Origin: Byssovorax sp.
GTDB lineage: Bacteria; Myxococcota_A; Polyangia; Polyangiales; Polyangiaceae
Length of the DNA stretch: 64,000 nt
NCBI GenBank assembly: GCA_025362495.1
Contig: JANYGI010000218.1
Span: 1-64,000 of the forward strand
Direction: 5' to 3'
Shown here: piece by piece, positions 18,848 to 28,952 of the stretch
Layout: the number at the start of each line of letters is the position of its first letter
Numbering within the stretch: the first letter of the stretch is position 1
Translations under genes and position numbers: made by a program
Notes under the pieces: generated by a model
Database searches by the model: none
What the model saw: only the letters and a program-made list of their open reading frames with translations
What the model was told of the DNA's origin: nothing

Positions 18848-18910
18848 AGCGGCGCGGCGACCGGTTCGCCGTTGACCGCGAGGAGGCCGTTTTGTAACGT
18901 GTTTTCAAAG

Positions 18911-20947
18911 ATGATAGGCAGGCTTGTCGGCGGCAAATACAGCCTCGAGCGCGAGATAGGCCGCGGTGGCATGGGGTCGATCTGGGTCGCCCTCGACACC
19001 CAGCTCCGCCGCCGCGTGGCCCTCAAGCTGATGCGCCCGGAGATGACGTCGGCGAGCTCGCGCGGCCGCTTCGAGCGCGAGGCCATGGCTGTCGCCCGCA
19101 TCCAGAACCCGCACGTCATCCAGATCTACGACTACGGCATCGACGAAGAAGCCCAGTACATCGTGATGGAGCTCCTCGAGGGCGAGGACATGGAAGCCCG
19201 CATCGTGCGGAACCCGCGCCTCTCGATCGCCGCTGTGGCCACGTTCGTCACCCAGACGGCGAAGGCGCTCGGCGCGGCGCACGCAGCGGGCATCGTCCAC
19301 CGCGATCTCAAGCCGGCCAACATCTTCCTCGCGCGCGGCGAGGCCGAGGAGATGGTCAAGATCCTCGATTTCGGCGTCGCCGCGATGAGCTCGCTCGGCG
19401 ACGATCTCCACACGACGCGCACGGGCACCGTGCTCGGCACGCCCCACTACATGAGCCCCGAGCAGGCCCGCAGCGCGCGATCGCTCGACCACCGCAGCGA
19501 TCTCTGGTCGCTCGGCGTCGTGGCCTACCGCGCGCTCACCGGCCAGCACCCGTTCACGGGGGAGTCGCTCGGCGACCTCATCGTGAAGATCTGCACCGAT
19601 CCCTTCGCGCCGGCCTCGGAGCTCGTGCCCGAGCTCGGGGCCGAGGTCGATCACTTCTTCGAGCGCGCCCTGGCGAAGGATCCCGCGCAGCGCTTCCAGT
19701 CGGCGCGCGATCTCATGCGCACGTTCGCGGGCCTCGTCGGCGACGGCCGCGAGGGGCGCGCCGCCAAGATCCTGGTCATCGACGACGAGCCCGATCTCGC
19801 GCTGCTGATCAAGCAGCGCTTCCGCCAGCAGATCCGCAAATCGGTGTACGAGTTCGTCTTCGCGCAGGACGGCGCCGCGGCGCTCGAGCAGCTGCATTTG
19901 CACCCGGACATCGATCTCGCGCTCTCGGACATCAACATGCCGGGGATGGACGGCCTCACGTTCCTCGAGCGCGCCTCCGAGCTCCGCCCGCTGCTCGAGG
20001 TGGTGATGGTCTCGGCCTACGGCGACATGACCAACATCCGCTCGGCGATGAACCGCGGCGCGTTCGATTTCCTCGTCAAGCCGATCGACTTCAAGGACTT
20101 CGAGGTGACGATCACCAAGACGCTCAAGCACGTCACCGACGCGCAGCACACCGCGCGATCCCTGGAAGAGAACGCTATTTTGCGGATGTTCGTCAGCGGC
20201 GTGGTCCTCGATCGGCTCCCGCGCCGCGCCATGGCCGGCGACGTGACGGCGAGCGAGAGCGTCGACGTATCGGTGGTATTCATCGACATCTGTGGCCTCG
20301 ATCGGCTGCTCGCGTCGGGCCCGCCCGAGGCGGCGATGCGCACGCTCAACGCCAACTTCGAGATCATCGTGCCCGAGGTCGCGGCGCGGAACGGCATCGT
20401 CGACAAGTTCCTCGGCGACGCCGTCCTCGCGGTGTTCCGCGGCGACCAGCACGCCGAGCGCGCCCTCGACGCCAGCCTCTCGGTGCGCAGCCAGCTCGCG
20501 CGGATGGCCGAGCGCGCCGGCGAAGACTCGCCCTACGCCTGCGGCGTGAGCATCGGCATCGACAGCGGCCGCGTCGCGCTGGGGAGCCTGGGCTCGCGCG
20601 CGCTGTCGCGCCTCGATTTGACGGTGATCGGCGCCGCGGTCAGCGCGGCGGCGCGCCTCGAAGCCATCGCCGAGCGCGGCCAGATCCTGATCTCGGAGCG
20701 CGTGTTCGGCGCTGTGCATGGCGCGTTCGAGTGCGAGCCGCAGAAGCCGGTGACGCTGCCCGGGCACGACGGGCCGGCGGCCGTGTTCAACATCGTCGGG
20801 CGCATCCAGGCCTCGGAGCCGAGCCAGATCTCCGAGGCCCGCACCGTGCAAATGGATGAGAGCTCGGTGCGATTCGCGGCGCCGGGCGACGCCGATCGGA
20901 TCCACGAGATCCAGGCGGCGCTCGACGGGGGATCGAGCAACCGTTAG
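18911..20947 (+). CDS. Ser/Thr kinase - receiver - class III nucleotide cyclase fusion protein
   Basis: 678 residues from ATG 18911 (an upstream TTG at 18872 is possible). Domains in order: Hanks kinase about 10-275 (GRGGMGSIW, VALKLM, HRDLKPAN, DFGVAAM, GTPHYMSPEQ, all catalytic residues present); CheY-like receiver about 285-410 (VIDDEPD, phospho-acceptor Asp in SDINMPGMDG, Lys in VKPIDF); class III cyclase about 450-610. The cyclase keeps both metal Asp residues (FIDICG and KFLGDAVLAVF), the Lys, and Arg in AAARLE. Thr occupies the adenine-specificity position, as in many bacterial type IIIb enzymes, but the transition-state Asn is Ser (GAAVSAAARLE). No transmembrane segment. A soluble protein joining three signalling chemistries. 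Confidence 0.9.
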   Translation: MIGRLVGGKYSLEREIGRGGMGSIWVALDTQLRRRVALKLMRPEMTSASSRGRFEREAMAVARIQNPHVIQIYDYGIDEEAQYIVMELLEGEDMEARIVRNPRLSIAAVATFVTQTAKALGAAHAAGIVHRDLKPANIFLARGEAEEMVKILDFGVAAMSSLGDDLHTTRTGTVLGTPHYMSPEQARSARSLDHRSDLWSLGVVAYRALTGQHPFTGESLGDLIVKICTDPFAPASELVPELGAEVDHFFERALAKDPAQRFQSARDLMRTFAGLVGDGREGRAAKILVIDDEPDLALLIKQRFRQQIRKSVYEFVFAQDGAAALEQLHLHPDIDLALSDINMPGMDGLTFLERASELRPLLEVVMVSAYGDMTNIRSAMNRGAFDFLVKPIDFKDFEVTITKTLKHVTDAQHTARSLEENAILRMFVSGVVLDRLPRRAMAGDVTASESVDVSVVFIDICGLDRLLASGPPEAAMRTLNANFEIIVPEVAARNGIVDKFLGDAVLAVFRGDQHAERALDASLSVRSQLARMAERAGEDSPYACGVSIGIDSGRVALGSLGSRALSRLDLTVIGAAVSAAARLEAIAERGQILISERVFGAVHGAFECEPQKPVTLPGHDGPAAVFNIVGRIQASEPSQISEARTVQMDESSVRFAAPGDADRIHEIQAALDGGSSNR

Positions 20948-20971: not shown

Positions 20972-22261
<1,290 letters not shown>

Positions 22262-22276
22262 GCGACCCTCGGCGCG

Positions 22277-23284
22277 ATGCTGGAGGCACGACGGCTCGCG
22301 GGGATGCTGCTGTTCGCCGTCGCGCTGGCGACGGAGCCCGCGCTCGCGGACGATCCTTCGCCGGCCCTCGTCGAGGCGCGTGAGGCCTTCACCCGCGGCG
22401 CCGATCTCGCGAAAGACGCGCAGTGGAGCGCGGCGCTGGCCTCGTTCGAGCGCTCGGCCAAGCTCCGTCCACACGCGTGGACGACGTACAACATCGGCGT
22501 CTGCGAGCGCGCGCTCGGCCGCTACACGCGGGCGCAGCGCACCTTCGCGCGAGCCCTCGATGAGAACCGACCGGGATCGGATCTGCCGGAGACCACCGTC
22601 GACGACGTGCGCCGCTTTCAGGCCGAGATCGACGGCCTCGTCGCGCGCCTCGACGTCACGCTCGATCCCGCCGACGCCGCGATCGCCGTCGACGGCGCGC
22701 CGCTGGAGCGCCGCCTCGCGGCCCCCGACGCGCGACCGGTGCTGGTCGCCGGCACGCTGCCCGCGGGCCCGGGAAAGGCCCCGCCCGCCGCGCGATTCCA
22801 GCTCGTGCTCGATCCTGGATCGCACGTGCTGATGGTCACCCGCGACGGCTTCGCGACTGCGGCGCAGACCGAGGTCGCGCGCCCGGGCGAGCGCCGCACC
22901 CTGGAAATCAAGGTCGATCGCATGCCCGCGACCGTCGCTGTCGCCGCGAGCGAGCGCGACGCCGTCGTGACGATCGATGGGCTCGACGTGGGGACCACGC
23001 CGGTCACGCTGCAGCGCCCCGCGGGCGTGCACCACGTGATCGTGCGCAAGCCGGGGTTCGATCCGTACGAGATCGACGCCACGGTGAAGGCCGGCCAGCG
23101 CCTCGAGATCGCGGCCACGCTCAAGCTCCACAAGCCGAGCGTGCTCACCCGCTGGTGGTTCTGGACCGCCGCCGGCGCCGTCGTCGCGGGGACGGTGCTC
23201 ACCACCTACGCGTTGACGCGCCCCGATCCGACCCGCCCGCCCGTCGACGGCGGCGGCCTCGGCTGGGCGGTGCGCGTGCCCTGA
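22277..23284 (+). CDS. TPR / PEGA-domain membrane protein
   Basis: 335 residues. N-terminal signal peptide (GMLLFAVALATEPALADDP), TPR-like helices at about 30-100 (ALASFERSAKLRPHAWTTYN, then GVCERALGRYTRAQRTFARA), two PEGA-like beta modules (LDPGSHVLMVTRDGF, then VTIDGLDVGTTPVTLQRPA), and a C-terminal transmembrane helix (WWFWTAAGAVVAGTVLTTYA). Such proteins regularly accompany myxobacterial Ser/Thr kinases and are thought to be envelope scaffolds. It converges on the ZAS-kinase gene 9 nt downstream. Confidence 0.8.
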   Translation: MLEARRLAGMLLFAVALATEPALADDPSPALVEAREAFTRGADLAKDAQWSAALASFERSAKLRPHAWTTYNIGVCERALGRYTRAQRTFARALDENRPGSDLPETTVDDVRRFQAEIDGLVARLDVTLDPADAAIAVDGAPLERRLAAPDARPVLVAGTLPAGPGKAPPAARFQLVLDPGSHVLMVTRDGFATAAQTEVARPGERRTLEIKVDRMPATVAVAASERDAVVTIDGLDVGTTPVTLQRPAGVHHVIVRKPGFDPYEIDATVKAGQRLEIAATLKLHKPSVLTRWWFWTAAGAVVAGTVLTTYALTRPDPTRPPVDGGGLGWAVRVP

Positions 23285-23293
23285 TCGATCGCC

Positions 23294-24352
23294 TCAGCGC
23301 GCTCGCGCGAGCTCGTCCAGGATCTCGTGGACGTCGCCGAGATCGGGCCTCCCCGCGCGATCGTGCGCGAGCATCCGATCGATGAGCTCGGTGAGCACGC
23401 GCGGCGCCTCCGGCGCGAGCTCCGCCGTCGGCCTCAGCGCGTCGCGGCCCGCGCTGCGGACGAGCTGCGCGTACGACGTCCCCTCGAGCGGCCGGCGGCC
23501 CGTCAAGCACTCGTACGCGAGCGCGCCGATGGCCCACACGTCGGCGCGGCTGTCGATGTCGCCCTCGCCATAGAGCTGCTCGGGGGCCATGTAGTGCGGC
23601 GTCCCGACGATGGCGCCGGTCCGCGTCAGCACCTCGACGTCGTGACCGACGAGCTTGGCGAGGCCGAAGTCGAGGAGGAGCACCACCGGCTCGGAGGCCT
23701 CGGTCTCGCGCGCGAGGAAGACGTTCTGAGGCTTCAAATCGCGGTGAAGCACGGAGCGGGCGTGGGCGGCGCGCACCGCGGCCACGAGCGGCAAGAGGAC
23801 CTTGATCGCCGCGGCGACGCCGAGCTTCTTCTCGCGCGCGAGGAGCCGATCGAGCGACTCCCCCGAGAGCAGATCCATCACCAGGATCGGGGGCGCGCCG
23901 CCGATCCAGAGCACCTCTTTCACCTCGACGATGCTGGGGTGCCCGATCAGCGAGGCGACCAGCGCCTCGCGGCGGGCGCGGCGGGTCAGCTCGGGCGTGT
24001 CGACCTTGAGCATCTTCAGCGCGACGAGCCGCCCGCCGTCGAGGGTCGACGCCGCCCAGACCACGCCCATGCCGCCCTCGCCGATGATCCGATCGAGCCG
24101 GTAACGGCCCGCGATCACGTCGCCCGCCGCGGGGCGTGCCGCGCTCGCCAGCGCGGGGCCAGGCGGGAGATCGCTCGGCGACGTCTCCCCGTACGGCGAG
24201 ACGTCGCCCTCGCTGTCGTCGGTGACGCGAGCGTACGCGGCGACGAGGGCGCGGCAGGTCTCGCAGCCGTCGAGGTGAGCTTCCACGAGATCGTCGCGCA
24301 GCGGGCCGCCCGCGAAGACGTCGAACAGCCGCGACGCGTCGAGGCACTCCAT
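23294..24352 (-). CDS. Ser/Thr kinase with N-terminal zinc-finger anti-sigma-like domain
   Basis: 352 residues. The first 40 form a ZAS-type zinc-binding fold: H26-x3-C30-x2-C33 (AHLDGCETCRALV). The kinase domain covers about 80-345 with GEGGMGVVW, VALKMLKVD, HRDLKPQNVF, DFGLAKLV, GTPHYMAPEQ and a C-terminal lobe ending at the stop. There is no transmembrane segment, so both parts are cytoplasmic. The start lies 37 bp from the divergent start of a sigma factor gene. The natural inference is that the ZAS part binds that sigma factor, with kinase activity controlling release; a function for the pair is not proven. Confidence 0.87.
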   Translation of the reverse strand: MECLDASRLFDVFAGGPLRDDLVEAHLDGCETCRALVAAYARVTDDSEGDVSPYGETSPSDLPPGPALASAARPAAGDVIAGRYRLDRIIGEGGMGVVWAASTLDGGRLVALKMLKVDTPELTRRARREALVASLIGHPSIVEVKEVLWIGGAPPILVMDLLSGESLDRLLAREKKLGVAAAIKVLLPLVAAVRAAHARSVLHRDLKPQNVFLARETEASEPVVLLLDFGLAKLVGHDVEVLTRTGAIVGTPHYMAPEQLYGEGDIDSRADVWAIGALAYECLTGRRPLEGTSYAQLVRSAGRDALRPTAELAPEAPRVLTELIDRMLAHDRAGRPDLGDVHEILDELARAR

Positions 24353-24389
24353 CAGCGCAGCATAGATCAGGATCCGGTAGCATCCGCAC

Positions 24390-25190
24390 GTGCTCCGCGA
24401 GACCTCCGCCGCGACGTTCGAGGCCGCGCTCCGCCAGGGCCGTGAAGCCTGGCCGACGATCCAGGTCGATCTCGAGCGCTTCCGGCGCCACCTCGACGCG
24501 CACCGCGCCGAGGCCGGCGACGCGGGCCTGCACCACGCCGACGTCTACCTGGCGATCGGGTGCGCCGCGGGCGATGCGGCGTCCCTCGCGGCCTTCGAAC
24601 AGCACCACGGCCCCGAGGTCGGCCGATCCCTCGCGCGCCTCCGCCTGCACGGGCCCGCCGCCGCCGAGATCCACCAGCGCCTCCGGCACAAGCTCTTCGT
24701 GGCCGAGCCCGGCGCCGAGCCTCGCATCGTCGGCTACTCGGGCCGCGGGCCGCTCCGCGCCTGGCTGCGCGCCCTCGTGGCCCACGAAGCCCTGAGCGAG
24801 CTCCGGCGCGGGCGCCGCGAGGATCACCTCTCCGACTCGGCCCTGAGCGATCGCGCCGCGGGCGACGATCCCGAGCTCGCGCAGATCCGCGCGCGCTACG
24901 CCGCGCCGTTTCGCGAGGCGTTCCAGGCCTCGCTCGCCGCGCTCTCGCCGCGCGATCGCAACCTCGTTCGCCTCGTGTACACCGACGGCCTCACGGTCGA
25001 GCAGGTCGCGATCACCTACGGCGTCCACCGGGTGAGCGTCTCGCGGTGGCTCGGCCAGCTCCGCGGCGATCTCCTCGAAGGCACCCGCGCCCGCCTGCGC
25101 GAGTGCCTGCACCTCGACGACTCCGAGCTCCGCAGCCTGACCCGCCTCTGCCTGAGCCAGATCGACGTGAGCCTCGACCGCATCCTCTAG
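24390..25190 (+). CDS. Sigma-70 family (ECF-like) RNA polymerase sigma factor
   Basis: 266 residues from GTG 24390. Region 2-like helices lie at about 50-145 (LRHKLFVAEP, GPLRAWLRALVAHEALSELR); region 4 is clear near 190-235 (LSPRDRNLVRLVYTDGLTVE then QVAITYGVHRVSVSRWLGQL). It is longer than a typical ECF factor and its region 2 is divergent. The divergent neighbour is a kinase bearing a ZAS domain, the usual anti-sigma fold, which supports a dedicated regulatory pair. Any autoregulated promoter would lie in the 37-bp gap or within the coding ends. Confidence 0.82.
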   Translation: MLRETSAATFEAALRQGREAWPTIQVDLERFRRHLDAHRAEAGDAGLHHADVYLAIGCAAGDAASLAAFEQHHGPEVGRSLARLRLHGPAAAEIHQRLRHKLFVAEPGAEPRIVGYSGRGPLRAWLRALVAHEALSELRRGRREDHLSDSALSDRAAGDDPELAQIRARYAAPFREAFQASLAALSPRDRNLVRLVYTDGLTVEQVAITYGVHRVSVSRWLGQLRGDLLEGTRARLRECLHLDDSELRSLTRLCLSQIDVSLDRIL

Positions 25191-25376: not shown

Positions 25377-25946
25377 ATGTTCAAGCGCGTGATGGGTCTG
25401 GTCGTGGCTGTTGGCGTGATGGGGATGACGACGCTGGTGGGCTGTGGGGGCGGCGAGGGTTCGAGCGGCGCCGGCGGATCTGGCAGCGGCAGCAACACCA
25501 CGAGCGGTAACAACACCACGAGCGGCAACAACACCACGAGCGGCTCGAACAGCTTCTCGTGCTGCCTCAACGACCAGCACTTCACCTGTCCTTCGCAGGC
25601 CGCCGTCGACAAGTGCGTCGATTTCAACGGGCCGGATCCCTCGGGCTGCCAGGCTGACGCGAAGTCGTGCGGCAACCCCACCTCGGCCTCGGGCAACCCG
25701 ACGTCGGCCTCGGGCAACCCCACCTCGGCCTCGGGCAACCCCGCGACGACGTCGGGCGGCGGCGGCGACGACTTCGGCAAGCAGTGCCAGAACAACTCGG
25801 ACTGCGCGCACAACTCCTGCCTCGTCGCCACCGGCGCCGACTTCGGCTACTGCACGAGCACCTGCATGGACTTCACCGAGTGCCCCAACTTCTGGAGCTG
25901 TGACCAGGTCGGGAACGCCACCGGCAAGTACTGCATCCAGAACTGA
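25377..25946 (+). CDS. Small repeat-linker Cys-rich lipoprotein
   Basis: 189 residues from ATG 25377, with AAGGAG about 8 nt upstream. Signal peptide and lipobox TLVGCGGG. Two low-complexity repeats follow: three copies of GNNTTS and about four of SGNPTSA. Two small Cys-rich domains surround the second repeat: FSCCLNDQHFTCPSQAAVDK with CVDF, and CQNNSDCAHNSC...CTSTCMDFTECPNFWSC. The latter resembles the Cys-rich units of the large lipoprotein at 7826-11053. Envelope protein of unknown role. Confidence 0.85.
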   Translation: MFKRVMGLVVAVGVMGMTTLVGCGGGEGSSGAGGSGSGSNTTSGNNTTSGNNTTSGSNSFSCCLNDQHFTCPSQAAVDKCVDFNGPDPSGCQADAKSCGNPTSASGNPTSASGNPTSASGNPATTSGGGGDDFGKQCQNNSDCAHNSCLVATGADFGYCTSTCMDFTECPNFWSCDQVGNATGKYCIQN

Positions 25947-26031: not shown

Positions 26032-27603
26032 ATGGCTGCCTCGTCTTCGATCCACGCGAATTGCCCTGCCTTCGAGGGGGCGTCGCGTCGCCGCGCCGGA
26101 GCGCTGGTGATCGCGGGCGCGCTCGCCGCGACGGTGAGCGGGTGCGACGCCGCGTTGCCGCCCCTCCCCGAGATAGTCGTCGTCGTCGACACCGATCTGC
26201 CCGTCGCGCTCGCGGCGTCGCAGCTCCGCGTCGATCTCTACACCGAGCAGGGCATCTGGTTCGAATCGAGCGATATTTCGCGGCCGGATCCGCGGGACTG
26301 GCCGGTGAGCTTCGGTGTCTACTCCGAGGATCCGACGCGCTCGCGGCGAACGTGGGTGCGCCTCCGCGCGTACCTCGACGGGAAGACTCGCACGTATCAC
26401 GGGGAGAACCCGCATCGCTGGGGGACGGCGAGCGACGGTCCCGGTCCCGATCCCGGTCCAGATCCCACGGCCACGGGCCTGCGTCTCGTCGTCGATGGGC
26501 ACGACGTGACGCCGACGAGCGAGCCAGAGCCCCTAATCACGGTCGATCGCCTGGCGCTGATCGAGCTGGTTCCCGGCGAGAAACAGCGGGTCTCTCTCGT
26601 CCTGCGCGGCGCGTGCGAGGGCACGTCGGCCGTGTTCGGCGCCGATCCGCAAAGGCTCGTGCTCGGCGAGGCGCAGAGCTGCGTCGACGCCGACAAGACG
26701 CTCGCGCCGGTGACGCTGCTCGCGCCGGACCTCGAAGGCACCCTCGCGGCGCCGTCGCTGCAAGGCACCTGGCTCGCGGAGCCGGCCTGTCCGCGGCGCG
26801 ACGACGCCGGAGAGCGGGTGTGCGTCCCCGGAGGCGCGACCGTGCTTGGCACGACGGATCTGCTCTCCAGCGTGGAGATCCCGTCATCACCGGTCCGGGT
26901 CTTCGGGCTACGGCGTTACTTTCTCGATCGAGACGAAGTGACCGTCGCCCGGCTCCGTCAGGCCCTCTCCGCCGGCTTCCAGCCCACCAAGATGCCGCTC
27001 GCCAACCCGGGCGCGCTCGGCACCAAGGCGCCTGCCACCTGCACCTGGTCGACGATTCCCCTCGATCGCGAGGCCTATCCGCTCAACTGCGTCTCCTTCG
27101 CGACGGCGCGCGAGCTCTGCCGGTTCGGCGGCGGCGATCTCCCGACGGAGGCGCAGTGGGAGCACGCGGCCACGGTCGCCGGTCACCGCACCAAGGTCGA
27201 TTATCCCTGGGGCGACGACGAGCCGGACTGCGACCGAGCCGCCTTTGGCCGGGTCGTCGTCGGCGGCTCGAAGGGCAAGTGTCTCGACAAGGGCCCTCTC
27301 CCGCCGCCGGCCGCCGACAGCGCCAACGATCTCTCGCCGCTGGGGATCCGGGCCCTCGGCGGCGGCCTCTCCGAGTGGGTCCTCGACACGCCTGCTCCCT
27401 ACACCGACGCTTGCTGGCTCGACGCGGCGCTCGTCGATCCGCGCTGCGGCGATCCGGACCTGCCCGCGCCGCAGCGAGCGATCCGCGGCGGCAATTACAT
27501 CCTCCCCGAGATGGTGCACAGCACGATTCGCTTCCTCGATAAAGACACAGGGGTCTTCGCCCCGACGGGCTTCCGCTGCGCCTACCCGGAGGTCGGCCCG
27601 TGA
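26032..27603 (+). CDS. Lipoprotein with SUMF1/FGE-like C-terminal domain
   Basis: 523 residues from ATG 26032 (AGGA upstream). Lipobox region ATVSGCDAA. A beta-rich N-terminal domain begins PEIVVVVDTDLPV. Residues about 250-520 show the formylglycine-generating-enzyme-like sulfatase-modifying fold: CVPGGATVLG, YFLDRDEVTVARLRQ, NCVSFATARELCRF, GGDLPTEAQWEHAA, DYPWGDDEPDC, GGLSEWVLDT, RAIRGGNYI and TGFRCAYP. Catalytic FGE enzymes use a Cys pair near the C-terminus; I do not see that spacing, so this is probably a non-enzymatic or differently acting family member. The stop overlaps the next gene (GTGA). Confidence 0.82.
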   Translation: MAASSSIHANCPAFEGASRRRAGALVIAGALAATVSGCDAALPPLPEIVVVVDTDLPVALAASQLRVDLYTEQGIWFESSDISRPDPRDWPVSFGVYSEDPTRSRRTWVRLRAYLDGKTRTYHGENPHRWGTASDGPGPDPGPDPTATGLRLVVDGHDVTPTSEPEPLITVDRLALIELVPGEKQRVSLVLRGACEGTSAVFGADPQRLVLGEAQSCVDADKTLAPVTLLAPDLEGTLAAPSLQGTWLAEPACPRRDDAGERVCVPGGATVLGTTDLLSSVEIPSSPVRVFGLRRYFLDRDEVTVARLRQALSAGFQPTKMPLANPGALGTKAPATCTWSTIPLDREAYPLNCVSFATARELCRFGGGDLPTEAQWEHAATVAGHRTKVDYPWGDDEPDCDRAAFGRVVVGGSKGKCLDKGPLPPPAADSANDLSPLGIRALGGGLSEWVLDTPAPYTDACWLDAALVDPRCGDPDLPAPQRAIRGGNYILPEMVHSTIRFLDKDTGVFAPTGFRCAYPEVGP

Positions 27604-28952
27604 AGGCGATGCGGTTCATCGCACTGGCCATGATCACGGCGGCCGCCGGCTGCAGCGTGGAGCCGTTGCCGCCGCTCGGGCAAGTGCGCTTCTTCATCGA
27701 CACCGACGCGACGTTGCCGCCCGCGCCCGGCGCATTGCCGGGCGAGCAACCGGCGCTGTTCGATCGCCTGCGAATCGAGATCTTCGAGCCGGGCGCGAGC
27801 GCGCCTTGCGCGGAGTGCACGCGCGAGCTCGGCCTCGACCACGCCACGGTCTTCGAGGGACGCGCGAGCATCGGTATCCCGTCGCGGCCCGGGAAGGCAG
27901 GGTATCGCGCGCGGGTGCGCCTCTACCGGAGCGCCGGCCGCGACACCGTCGAGCCCCGCGCCACCTCGACGCTCGAGGCCGTGGTGCTCTTGCCCGTCGT
28001 CCAGGAAGAAGGCATCATCGACGCCCACGTGGTGCTGGCGACTGCCGATCTCGGCACGCCCCGCGGCACGCTCGATACGCCTGTTGCAGCCCTGGCCGGC
28101 CCGGCCGAAGGGGGCCTCGCCGGCACGTGGGCAGCCCCCTACGATCGAGGGTGCGTCGGCGCTCCGCTGGCGGGCGAGGTCTGCGTTCACGGCGGCGCGT
28201 ACTGGATGGGCGACGTCGCGCTCGGGAGCACGTATGGCAACGTCTCGTCCGAGCGGCTGGTGGCCGTCGCGCCCTATTATCTCGACGCGACCGAGGTCAC
28301 CGTGGCCGAGCTGCGCGCCTCGGGTATCAAGACGACCGGCGCTCTCATCCCCCACTCGGCGGCCGACCCTCATTGCACCTACAGCACGAAACCAGGCGAT
28401 CTGGAGGACCACGCCGTCAGCTGCGTCACGCGTCACGGCGCGCTGAAGTACTGCGCGACCCGGGGCGCGCGGCTGCCGACCGAGGCAGAGTGGGAGTTCG
28501 CGGCGAGCGCCCGGCGGAGCGCGCACACGGTCTGGGGCGATGATCCGCCGCGCTGCGAAGACGCGGTGTACGCCCGCTCCGACGATCCCGCGGCGGGAGC
28601 GGCGTCGCTGGAGTGCGCCGCGCTCGGCGCCGGCGACGCGCCCGTGGGGAGCGGCGCGCTCGATCACCTGGTGTTGAGCGGCGGCACCCTCGACGATCTC
28701 GCCGGAAACCTCACCGAATGGGTCGGCGACGACTGGGCCGAACAGACCGATCCCTGCTGGAACGCGCCCATCCTGGTCAATCCATTCTGCCCGCCGGTGA
28801 CGCCGCCCAAGGCCTACACGGTGCGGGGATCGAGCTGGCTACAAGGCGCCTCGTCGCTGCGGGCGGCGCTGCGCGCCCGGGTCGACGCCACCGGAGATCC
28901 GGTATCGAAGGCGATCGGATTTCGCTGCGCGCGCCCCGCCGACATGCCGTGA
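27600..28952 (+). CDS. Second SUMF1/FGE-like lipoprotein, paralogue of the preceding gene
   Basis: 450 residues from GTG 27600, overlapping the previous stop as GTGA, with GGAGG upstream. Lipobox AAAGCSVEP. The N-terminal half begins GQVRFFIDTDATLP, parallel to VVVVDTDLP in the upstream protein, so the pair arose by duplication. The C-terminal fold carries CVHGGAYWMGDV, YYLDATEVTVAELRA, SCVTRHGALKYC, ARLPTEAEWEFAASA, DDLAGNLTEWVGDDW and IGFRCARP. As in its partner, no FGE Cys pair was found. Both probably sit on the same envelope surface and may form a heteromer (inference). Confidence 0.82.
   Translation: MKAMRFIALAMITAAAGCSVEPLPPLGQVRFFIDTDATLPPAPGALPGEQPALFDRLRIEIFEPGASAPCAECTRELGLDHATVFEGRASIGIPSRPGKAGYRARVRLYRSAGRDTVEPRATSTLEAVVLLPVVQEEGIIDAHVVLATADLGTPRGTLDTPVAALAGPAEGGLAGTWAAPYDRGCVGAPLAGEVCVHGGAYWMGDVALGSTYGNVSSERLVAVAPYYLDATEVTVAELRASGIKTTGALIPHSAADPHCTYSTKPGDLEDHAVSCVTRHGALKYCATRGARLPTEAEWEFAASARRSAHTVWGDDPPRCEDAVYARSDDPAAGAASLECAALGAGDAPVGSGALDHLVLSGGTLDDLAGNLTEWVGDDWAEQTDPCWNAPILVNPFCPPVTPPKAYTVRGSSWLQGASSLRAALRARVDATGDPVSKAIGFRCARPADMP

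What the first reader, a model, noticed from the sequence alone, without database searches (positions are those of the whole stretch)
23294..25190. Zinc-finger (ZAS) kinase divergent from an ECF-like sigma factor
The kinase begins with H-x3-C-x2-C, the anti-sigma zinc-finger pattern, and starts 37 bp from a sigma gene on the other strand. This suggests direct coupling of Ser/Thr phosphorylation to sigma release in a soluble partner-switch, unlike transmembrane anti-sigma factors.
Basis: partly seen in the sequence, partly recalled or inferred. Interest (0 to 1): 0.55.

Follow-up and report, generated by a model that had tools for sequence, protein, structure and literature searches.

The report
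Kinase fused to anti-sigma zinc domain
In myxobacteria, a large and apparently unstudied family of protein kinases carries at its front end a small zinc domain that most likely grips and silences the gene-switching (sigma) factor encoded next door, so one protein may be both the lock on the switch and the enzyme that opens it.

Summary
The 352-aa kinase (24352..23294, -) starts with C3..H26-x3-C30-x2-C33 and lies 37 bp from a divergent 266-aa sigma factor of NCBIfam Sig-70_gmx1. The pairing is a rule. In this genome a zinc-anti-sigma (ZAS) profile gives exactly five strong hits, one at each of the five gmx1 genes. Over 60 genomes of the family, gmx1 and ZAS counts track at r=0.95. 99 of 121 gmx1 loci have a ZAS gene and 92 of these are kinases. 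0 of 30 other kinase loci here have one. The profile's solved relatives are anti-sigma domains. Two charge-complementary covarying pairs link sigma region 4 with ZAS (D199-R34, R188-E24); they repeat in two samples, beat every within-genome swap, and have no equal between sigma and kinase. Best reading: ZAS holds the sigma inactive and the attached kinase controls release. The holding is well supported; release by phosphorylation is inferred. "Partner switch" is the wrong term, and "soluble" fits this member but few relatives. I found no description in the papers I could search.

The parts
24203..24352 (-). ZAS (zinc anti-sigma) domain, kinase residues 1-50, with C3, H26, C30, C33 and the covarying E24 and R34
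   Evidence: left-out profile E=5.8e-11; A4 profile 51.9 bits; A4 matches solved anti-sigma domains RslA, DdvA, ChrR, weakly RsiW; residues checked
24104..24220 (-). linker, residues about 45-83, Ser/Thr- and acid-rich (DDSEGDVSPYGETSPSD), possible autophosphorylation region (inferred)
   Evidence: linker S/T fraction 13.0% against 9.1% in the kinase domain over 80 ZAS kinases
23339..24103 (-). Hanks-type Ser/Thr kinase domain, residues 84-338, catalytic motifs intact; no sensor domain after it
   Evidence: PF00069 147.7 bits; K113 and H203 invariant, R204, D205, K207, N210, D228-F-G at 90% or more over 54 ZAS kinases
24353..24389 (.). 37-bp gap between the divergent start codons; no recognisable promoter motif
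24390..25190 (+). Sig-70_gmx1 sigma factor, 266 aa: N-terminal helices (2-42), region 2 (about 49-148), region 4 (about 161-240), C-terminal helices (244-265)
   Evidence: TIGR03001 200.6 bits; AlphaFold2 model pLDDT 91.6, pTM 0.70; region 2 and 4 matches with rmsd 2.0-2.6
24951..24986 (+). sigma region 4 segment R188-D199, whose ends covary in charge with ZAS E24 and R34
   Evidence: coordinates
20972..22261 (+). second kinase, 429 aa, one hydrophobic segment after the kinase domain, no ZAS; candidate membrane partner
   Evidence: orthologue in the Minicystis rosea cluster, 55% identical
22277..23284 (+). TPR + PEGA protein, 335 aa, conserved in the cluster
26128..27603 (+). FGE-sulfatase-domain protein 1 (start approximate), conserved in the cluster, possible output gene
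   Evidence: PF03781 63.0 bits
27600..28952 (+). FGE-sulfatase-domain protein 2, conserved in the cluster, possible output gene
   Evidence: PF03781 90.1 bits

Best explanation
This is an anti-sigma factor and its regulator kinase in one polypeptide. Step 1 (well supported): the N-terminal ZAS domain binds region 4 of the gmx1 sigma factor encoded next to it and keeps it from promoters. Step 2 (inferred): when the kinase is switched on, it phosphorylates its own ZAS domain or the Ser/Thr- and acid-rich linker, or the bound sigma factor, and the sigma factor is released. Step 3 (inferred): here the kinase has no sensor or membrane segment, so its input probably comes from another protein, the best candidate being the membrane kinase encoded at 20972-22261. 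Longer relatives have membrane segments and/or TPR repeats after the kinase. Likely targets are the gene pair itself and the linked FGE-domain genes (weak).
For: One-to-one pairing: five gmx1 genes and exactly five ZAS hits above 51 bits at the same five places, the next being 31 bits; 60-genome counts r=0.955, presence/absence 33/2/1/24, totals 127 and 128. Adjacency: 99 of 121 loci with ZAS, 92 on kinases; in a second, partly overlapping, named sample 65 of 80, 63 on kinases. Control 0 of 30 kinase loci. Gene layout as for sigma/anti-sigma pairs: 61 of 99 divergent, mostly within 220 bp, and 22 downstream on the same strand. Domain identity: the profile's six PDB matches are five anti-sigma chains (RslA E=1.3e-8, DdvA, two ChrR, RsiW at a weak 0.07) and one CHAT-domain chain whose matched stretch aligns like DdvA's. 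Natural swaps: in three loci the ZAS domain next to a gmx1 sigma is joined to hydrophobic segments instead of a kinase (L146, L150, L082), like a classical membrane anti-sigma factor. Contact: two complementary charge pairs, r=-0.56 and -0.50 among 4,488 sigma x ZAS column pairs (next -0.34); best sigma x kinase pair -0.40 of 16,236; both repeat in each sample (n=89, n=51); 0 of 5000 within-genome swaps reach either. Kinase active-site residues conserved. Precedent: phosphorylation by PknB of the separate ZAS factors RshA and RseA frees SigH and SigE (PMC8999054, passages read).
Against: No binding, zinc or phosphorylation data. Linked genes inherited together can coevolve without touching; the swap control does not remove shared descent of paralogue pairs. 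ZAS-kinase (r=0.21), sigma-ZAS (0.40) and sigma-kinase (0.40) distances all correlate, so the distance test alone does not single out ZAS. The top mutual-information pair only just passed (0.156; 95% of shuffle maxima 0.138, highest 0.160). 22 of 121 loci show no ZAS gene, 10 of them with 4 kb or more on both sides. The ZAS profile was trained on part of the genomes counted and its seeds were found by the Hx3Cx2C pattern, so invariance of H and C is partly built in. The predicted sigma-ZAS chain (pTM 0.70) could not be inspected for contacts, and its two sigma regions together matched no solved arrangement closely (rmsd about 12 to 22).
Confidence: 0.62

Rival explanations
1. ECF43-like direct activation: the kinase phosphorylates the sigma factor to make it active, and the ZAS domain is only a docking site that brings the substrate to the kinase.
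For: Kinase-next-to-sigma is the ECF43 layout, with phosphorylation of the sigma shown for EcfP/PknT and EcfK/PknS (PMC8999054 section 3.4 read in full; PMC13147305 passages). Sigma and kinase-domain distances correlate as strongly as sigma and ZAS. The window sigma has A92-E93 where most of the family has two acids in region 2.2.
Against: ECF43 sigmas need phosphate because they lack the acidic region 2.2 motif; in gmx1 the two aligned positions are acidic in 95 and 118 of 121. No charge outlier between sigma and kinase columns. ZAS domains of known structure are inhibitors.
Confidence: 0.17
2. Redox or zinc sensor: the zinc site of ZAS senses oxidants (as in ChrR or RshA) and releases sigma, while the kinase has a separate output or merely tunes the switch.
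For: Soluble ZAS proteins often sense oxidants (PMC8999054). The Cys/His ligand positions are kept in the ZAS kinases.
Against: The zinc site is also structural in RsiW and probably in many membrane anti-sigma factors (PMC7406223). Fusion to an intact kinase in 92 of 99 ZAS genes would be wasteful. No redox gene among the eight cluster proteins scanned.
Confidence: 0.1
3. The ZAS domain binds sigma constitutively to recruit the kinase to RNA polymerase or promoters, where it phosphorylates other proteins.
For: Compatible with all pairing and covariation data.
Against: Anti-sigma domains of known complexes cover the polymerase-binding and promoter-binding faces of sigma (PMC7406223, passages). 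No positive evidence found.
Confidence: 0.06
4. No functional link: neighbouring genes that travel together.
For: Closely linked genes can be co-inherited.
Against: Four different relative positions, the partner several kb away in some loci, yet matched numbers per genome; contact-like charge pairs.
Confidence: 0.05

Closest known systems
RslA / SigL of M. tuberculosis (3hug) and ChrR / sigma-E of R. sphaeroides (2q1z): class I zinc anti-sigma factors
   Same: ZAS domain with Hx3Cx2C; best sequence match of the ZAS profile is 3hug chain B (E=1.3e-8), the entry of RslA with SigL region 4, and the best match confined to the window's sigma region 4 is SigL from the same entry (Z 8.9, rmsd 2.0, 71 residues)
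   Different: The domain behind ZAS is a Ser/Thr kinase, not a membrane or cupin sensor
RshA/SigH and RseA/SigE with PknB, M. tuberculosis
   Same: A Ser/Thr kinase acts on a ZAS anti-sigma factor (PMC8999054 passages)
   Different: There the kinase is a separate protein with many substrates; here kinase and ZAS are one dedicated protein per sigma factor
ECF43: EcfP/PknT and EcfK/PknS
   Same: Hanks-type kinase gene next to the sigma gene
   Different: ECF43 has no anti-sigma domain and an inactive sigma without the acidic region 2.2 motif; gmx1 keeps the acids and has ZAS
The six phosphorylation-type ECF groups listed by Marcos-Torres et al. 2022 (ECF43, 59, 61, 62, 217, 283; PMC8999054 table read)
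   Same: Sigma and kinase co-encoded
   Different: None of the listed model proteins is myxobacterial and no ZAS domain is mentioned for them there; which ECF group gmx1 falls in was not tested
Sig-70_gmx1, RNA polymerase sigma-70 factor, Myxococcales family 1 (TIGR03001)
   Same: The window sigma is a member
   Different: The model names the sigma family only; no partner is stated in the short description that I saw

Membership tests
Sig-70_gmx1 (TIGR03001) | Score above the curated cut-off | tested here: met
   200.6 bits against 154.6
ECF sigma factor | Regions 2 and 4 present and ECF superfamily score | tested here: met
   TIGR02937 48.5 bits against 42.9; model regions 2 and 4 match solved ECF regions
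Class I zinc anti-sigma (ZAS) domain | Hx3Cx2C with an upstream Cys/His ligand | tested here: met
   C3, H26, C30, C33 in the sequence
Class I zinc anti-sigma (ZAS) domain | Pfam zf-HC2 score above the curated cut-off, window protein | tested here: not met
   17.9 bits (21.1 for the 50-aa piece) against 22.2; 64 of 70 relatives' ZAS pieces match zf-HC2 at E<=0.01, three of the four other ZAS kinases of this genome are over the cut-off
Class I zinc anti-sigma (ZAS) domain | Sequence kinship to solved anti-sigma domains | tested here: met
   family profile hits RslA, DdvA, ChrR (E 1e-8 to 0.0035) and a DdvA-like stretch in a CHAT chain; RsiW weak at 0.07
Class I zinc anti-sigma (ZAS) domain | Co-encoded with its sigma factor | tested here: met
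Class I zinc anti-sigma (ZAS) domain | Binds and inhibits the cognate sigma | tested here: inconclusive
   covariation supports contact; predicted chain not inspectable; no binding data
Class I zinc anti-sigma (ZAS) domain | Zinc bound | not testable with these tools
   needs purified protein
Hanks-type Ser/Thr kinase | Catalytic Lys, HRDxKPxN, DFG | tested here: met
ECF43 phospho-activated sigma system | Sigma lacks the acidic region 2.2 motif | tested here: not met
   acidic at 95 and 118 of 121 in the two aligned columns; the window has A92-E93, one acid lost
Partner-switching system | Anti-anti-sigma (STAS or PhyR-like) protein in the module | tested here: not met
   none among the eight cluster proteins scanned; rest of the genome not searched

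The most novel reading that the evidence does not exclude
A separate mode of sigma control, expanded in myxobacteria: dedicated one-protein locks in which an anti-sigma domain and the kinase that opens it are fused in cis, up to about a dozen orthogonal pairs per genome, with orthogonality written in part in a small charge code at the ZAS / region 4 interface; in the short soluble branch a second, membrane kinase triggers the fused kinase, giving a kinase cascade that ends directly on a sigma factor.
Probability: 0.4. Interest if true: 0.78.

Novelty: new variant of a known kind. Interest (0 to 1): 0.62.

Why it matters
Sorangium genomes are reported to hold hundreds of eukaryote-like kinases and about a hundred sigma factors but only a handful of recognised anti-sigma factors (508, 109 and 6 in So0157-2; PMC3696898 passages), and the targets of most of these kinases are, to my knowledge, unknown. 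If dozens of myxobacterial kinases are themselves anti-sigma factors, their targets become known at once from gene position, the missing anti-sigma factors are in part found, and a direct kinase-to-promoter route becomes testable in a few experiments. The matched pairs would also be useful orthogonal switches.

Tried and rejected
Promoter in the 37-bp gap: 56 divergent gaps compared, no convincing shared motif (best 6-mer TAGCAT/ATGCTA in 8 of 56 against 0.8 expected in mononucleotide shuffles, uncorrected for the many words tested); an ECF-like pattern matched only scattered loci and not the window.

Complex prediction: the pair lies on opposite strands, so a relative (L237) with both genes in one frame was folded as one chain. 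The structural comparisons recognise regions 2 and 4 separately; no Foldseek match reached E 0.001, and no anti-sigma chain was listed for the ZAS part, which says nothing against it. A first alignment with loose ZAS pieces put them onto region 4 and was dropped.

Mutual information by itself was too weak to carry the case. Distance correlation does not separate ZAS from kinase. The ECF group number of this sigma was not determined.

Literature: ten searches plus passages or sections of PMC8999054, PMC8103513, PMC13147305, PMC7406223, PMC3696898, PMC2887360, PMC11032199, PMC2877116 and PMC6213207 gave no description of a ZAS-kinase fusion. I did not have the ECF re-classification of 2021 (I tried one DOI from memory, not held) or the myxobacterial kinome paper of 2008, so they were not read. 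One search returned mostly unrelated drug papers because of a name clash.

Numbering: sigma positions printed are four too high; R188 and D199 as used here were checked on the window sequence.

Full report
OBSERVATION. The kinase (24352..23294, -) and the sigma factor (24390..25190, +) are divergent with 37 bases between start codons. The kinase N-terminus carries C3, H26, C30, C33; the kinase domain spans residues 84-338 of 352, so no sensor domain follows. The sigma factor is Sig-70_gmx1 (TIGR03001, 200.6 bits, cut-off 154.6). By Pfam's curated cut-off the window's own zinc motif just fails as zf-HC2, so the case rests on its relatives: a profile from 76 relatives, window left out, finds it at E=5.8e-11.

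THE PAIRING IS A RULE. This genome has five gmx1 genes over the cut-off. Searching the same genome with a 70-member ZAS profile gives exactly five hits above 51 bits (C55, C119, C126, C56, C64), the same five places, then a drop to 31 bits. I fetched 120 stretches around gmx1 matches of 34 genomes of the family (chosen from the list, best first, the weakest listed ones only in part) and, with the window, found a ZAS gene (E<=0.001) in 99 of 121; 92 of these are kinase ORFs by my search. Of the other seven, L160 reads as a divergent kinase, L146, L150 and L082 are ZAS plus hydrophobic segments, L077 is a 69-aa stand-alone ZAS, L074 ends soon after ZAS, and L119 is probably an unrelated anti-sigma factor (the readings of single sequences are by eye). 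Of 76 loci with at least 4 kb on both sides, 66 have a ZAS gene. A second sample of 80 named loci, partly overlapping the first (Sorangium, Nannocystis, Myxococcus, Archangium, Hyalangium, Polyangium, Minicystis and many MAGs), gives 65 of 80, 63 on kinases; some of the 15 misses lie at contig ends. Over 60 genomes, gmx1 counts (E<=1e-25) and ZAS counts (E<=1e-9) correlate at r=0.955 (0.94 after removing genome size); presence/absence is 33 both, 2 sigma only, 1 ZAS only, 24 neither. The ZAS profile was trained on sequences from part of these genomes. As a control, 0 of 30 top-scoring other kinase loci of this genome has ZAS at its N-terminus (30 loci given out of the more than 150 kinase matches). 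In the phylum sample 19 of 188 genomes have gmx1, and none of the 14 control genomes.

LAYOUT. Of the 99, 61 are divergent (most ZAS-to-sigma distances under 220 bp), 22 lie downstream on the same strand (15 within 100 bp, the textbook sigma/anti-sigma operon), 9 upstream on the same strand and 7 convergent. So the order of the genes varies but the partnership stays.

THE ZAS DOMAIN. The profile matches six distinct PDB sequences at E<=10: 3hug chain B (the entry of RslA with SigL), DdvA (8rlz), a CHAT-domain chain with a DdvA-like stretch (8rot), ChrR (2q1z, 2z2s) and, weakly, RsiW (5wuq). The Cys-to-His spacing is 25 in 64 of 79 relatives and a ChrR histidine aligns to the Cys. For the window's sigma, region 2 matches E. 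coli sigma-E region 2 (Z 9.2-9.4, rmsd 2.3-2.6) and region 4 matches SigL, the partner of RslA (Z 8.9, rmsd 2.0, 71 residues); such Z values are middling for helical domains.

DOES ZAS TOUCH SIGMA? 140 non-identical pairs from both samples were aligned (149 before removing duplicates; pairs with incomplete kinase or out-of-frame sigma were left out). Distances: sigma-ZAS r=0.395, sigma-kinase 0.399, ZAS-kinase 0.212, each beyond 999 shuffles. The sigma thus tracks ZAS as well as it tracks the kinase, and more than the two parts of one polypeptide track each other. Residue level: among 4,488 sigma x ZAS column pairs two stand out in charge, both attractive: sigma D199 with ZAS R34 (r=-0.56) and sigma R188 with ZAS E24 (-0.50); the next is -0.34. 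Among 16,236 sigma x kinase pairs the best is -0.40. Both sigma residues sit at the ends of one region 4 helix (187-198 in the model) and both ZAS residues next to the zinc knuckle. In the first sample (n=89) the table of sigma acid by ZAS base is 61/11/1/16, in the second (n=51) 31/7/4/9. In close-pair contrasts where the sigma acid differs, ZAS R34 differs the same way in 20, the opposite way in 0 and not at all in 10 of 30; where R34 differs, 23, 1 and 19 of 43. Swapping ZAS among pairs of the same genome (75 pairs, 17 genomes) never reached the observed charge correlations in 5000 trials or the distance correlation in 2000. The window pair has the canonical D-R and R-E residues. Joint descent of paralogous pairs remains a possible partial cause.

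THE KINASE. K113 and H203 are invariant and R204, D205, K207, P208, N210 and the DFG motif are kept at 90% or more in 54 ZAS kinases: as a family these are not dead kinases. Of 139 complete ZAS kinases, 89 have a hydrophobic segment after residue 320 and only 16 are shorter than 420 aa (a hydropathy rule, not a trained predictor); the other four of this genome are 910-979 aa with TPR repeats. So 'soluble' describes this member and its close relatives. Short members more often have a second, ZAS-less kinase in the stretch (9 of 16 against 24 of 123, p=0.003), and in Minicystis rosea (L115, G038, recognised by its 16,040,666-base chromosome shared with CP016211.1; Polyangiaceae) the whole set is kept: sigma 60%, ZAS kinase 64%, second kinase 55%, PEGA/TPR protein 64%, two FGE-domain proteins 55-56% identical. 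Homologues of one or both FGE proteins also occur in L072, L083, L088, L097, L134, L178 and L231.

MECHANISM. Shown by comparison: dedicated pairing, anti-sigma kinship, likely contact with region 4, intact kinase. Inferred: sequestration, and release on kinase activation. The linker is richer in Ser/Thr than the kinase domain (13.0% against 9.1%, 80 proteins) and the window and its two nearest relatives share an acidic DD[S/T] just behind ZAS, a plausible but untested phosphosite. The ECF43 route (phosphate replacing missing acids in region 2.2; PMC8999054 section 3.4) fits poorly because gmx1 keeps acids there in 95 and 118 of 121, although the window has lost one of the two (A92-E93).

NOVELTY. 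Known kinds meet here: class I ZAS anti-sigma, Hanks-type kinase, ECF-type sigma. Their fusion and its scale were not found in ten full-text searches (listed under Tried and rejected); two papers likely to bear on it could not be read. I therefore rate it a new variant of a known kind.

Noticed in passing
window 18872-20947 (+): One protein joins a Ser/Thr kinase, a response-regulator receiver and an adenylate/guanylate cyclase domain.
   Followed up: no
window 25377-25946 (+): Cys-rich probable lipoprotein with TSGNN and NPTSASG repeats directly behind the sigma gene; the stretch scanned (25386-25943) has no Pfam match.
   Followed up: no
window 26128-27603 and 27600-28952 (+): Two FGE-sulfatase-domain proteins that travel with the short ZAS kinases in several genomes.
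   Followed up: partly
L146, L150 (about 8.0 kb and 3.1 kb), L082 (6.0 kb): gmx1 sigma genes whose ZAS partner is joined to hydrophobic segments instead of a kinase: natural domain swaps.
   Followed up: partly
L077 7916-8074 (+): A 69-residue open frame with a stand-alone ZAS domain divergent from a gmx1 sigma gene; not checked for a frameshifted kinase behind it.
   Followed up: no
L070, L073, L081, L086, L098, L104, L131, L140, L172, L177: Ten gmx1 sigma genes with at least 4 kb on both sides and no recognisable ZAS partner; how they are controlled is open.
   Followed up: partly
PDB 8rot, 8rlz: The anti-sigma factor DdvA and a CHAT-domain chain carrying a DdvA-like zinc domain are among the closest solved relatives of this ZAS family: another case of ZAS joined to an unusual partner domain.
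   Followed up: no
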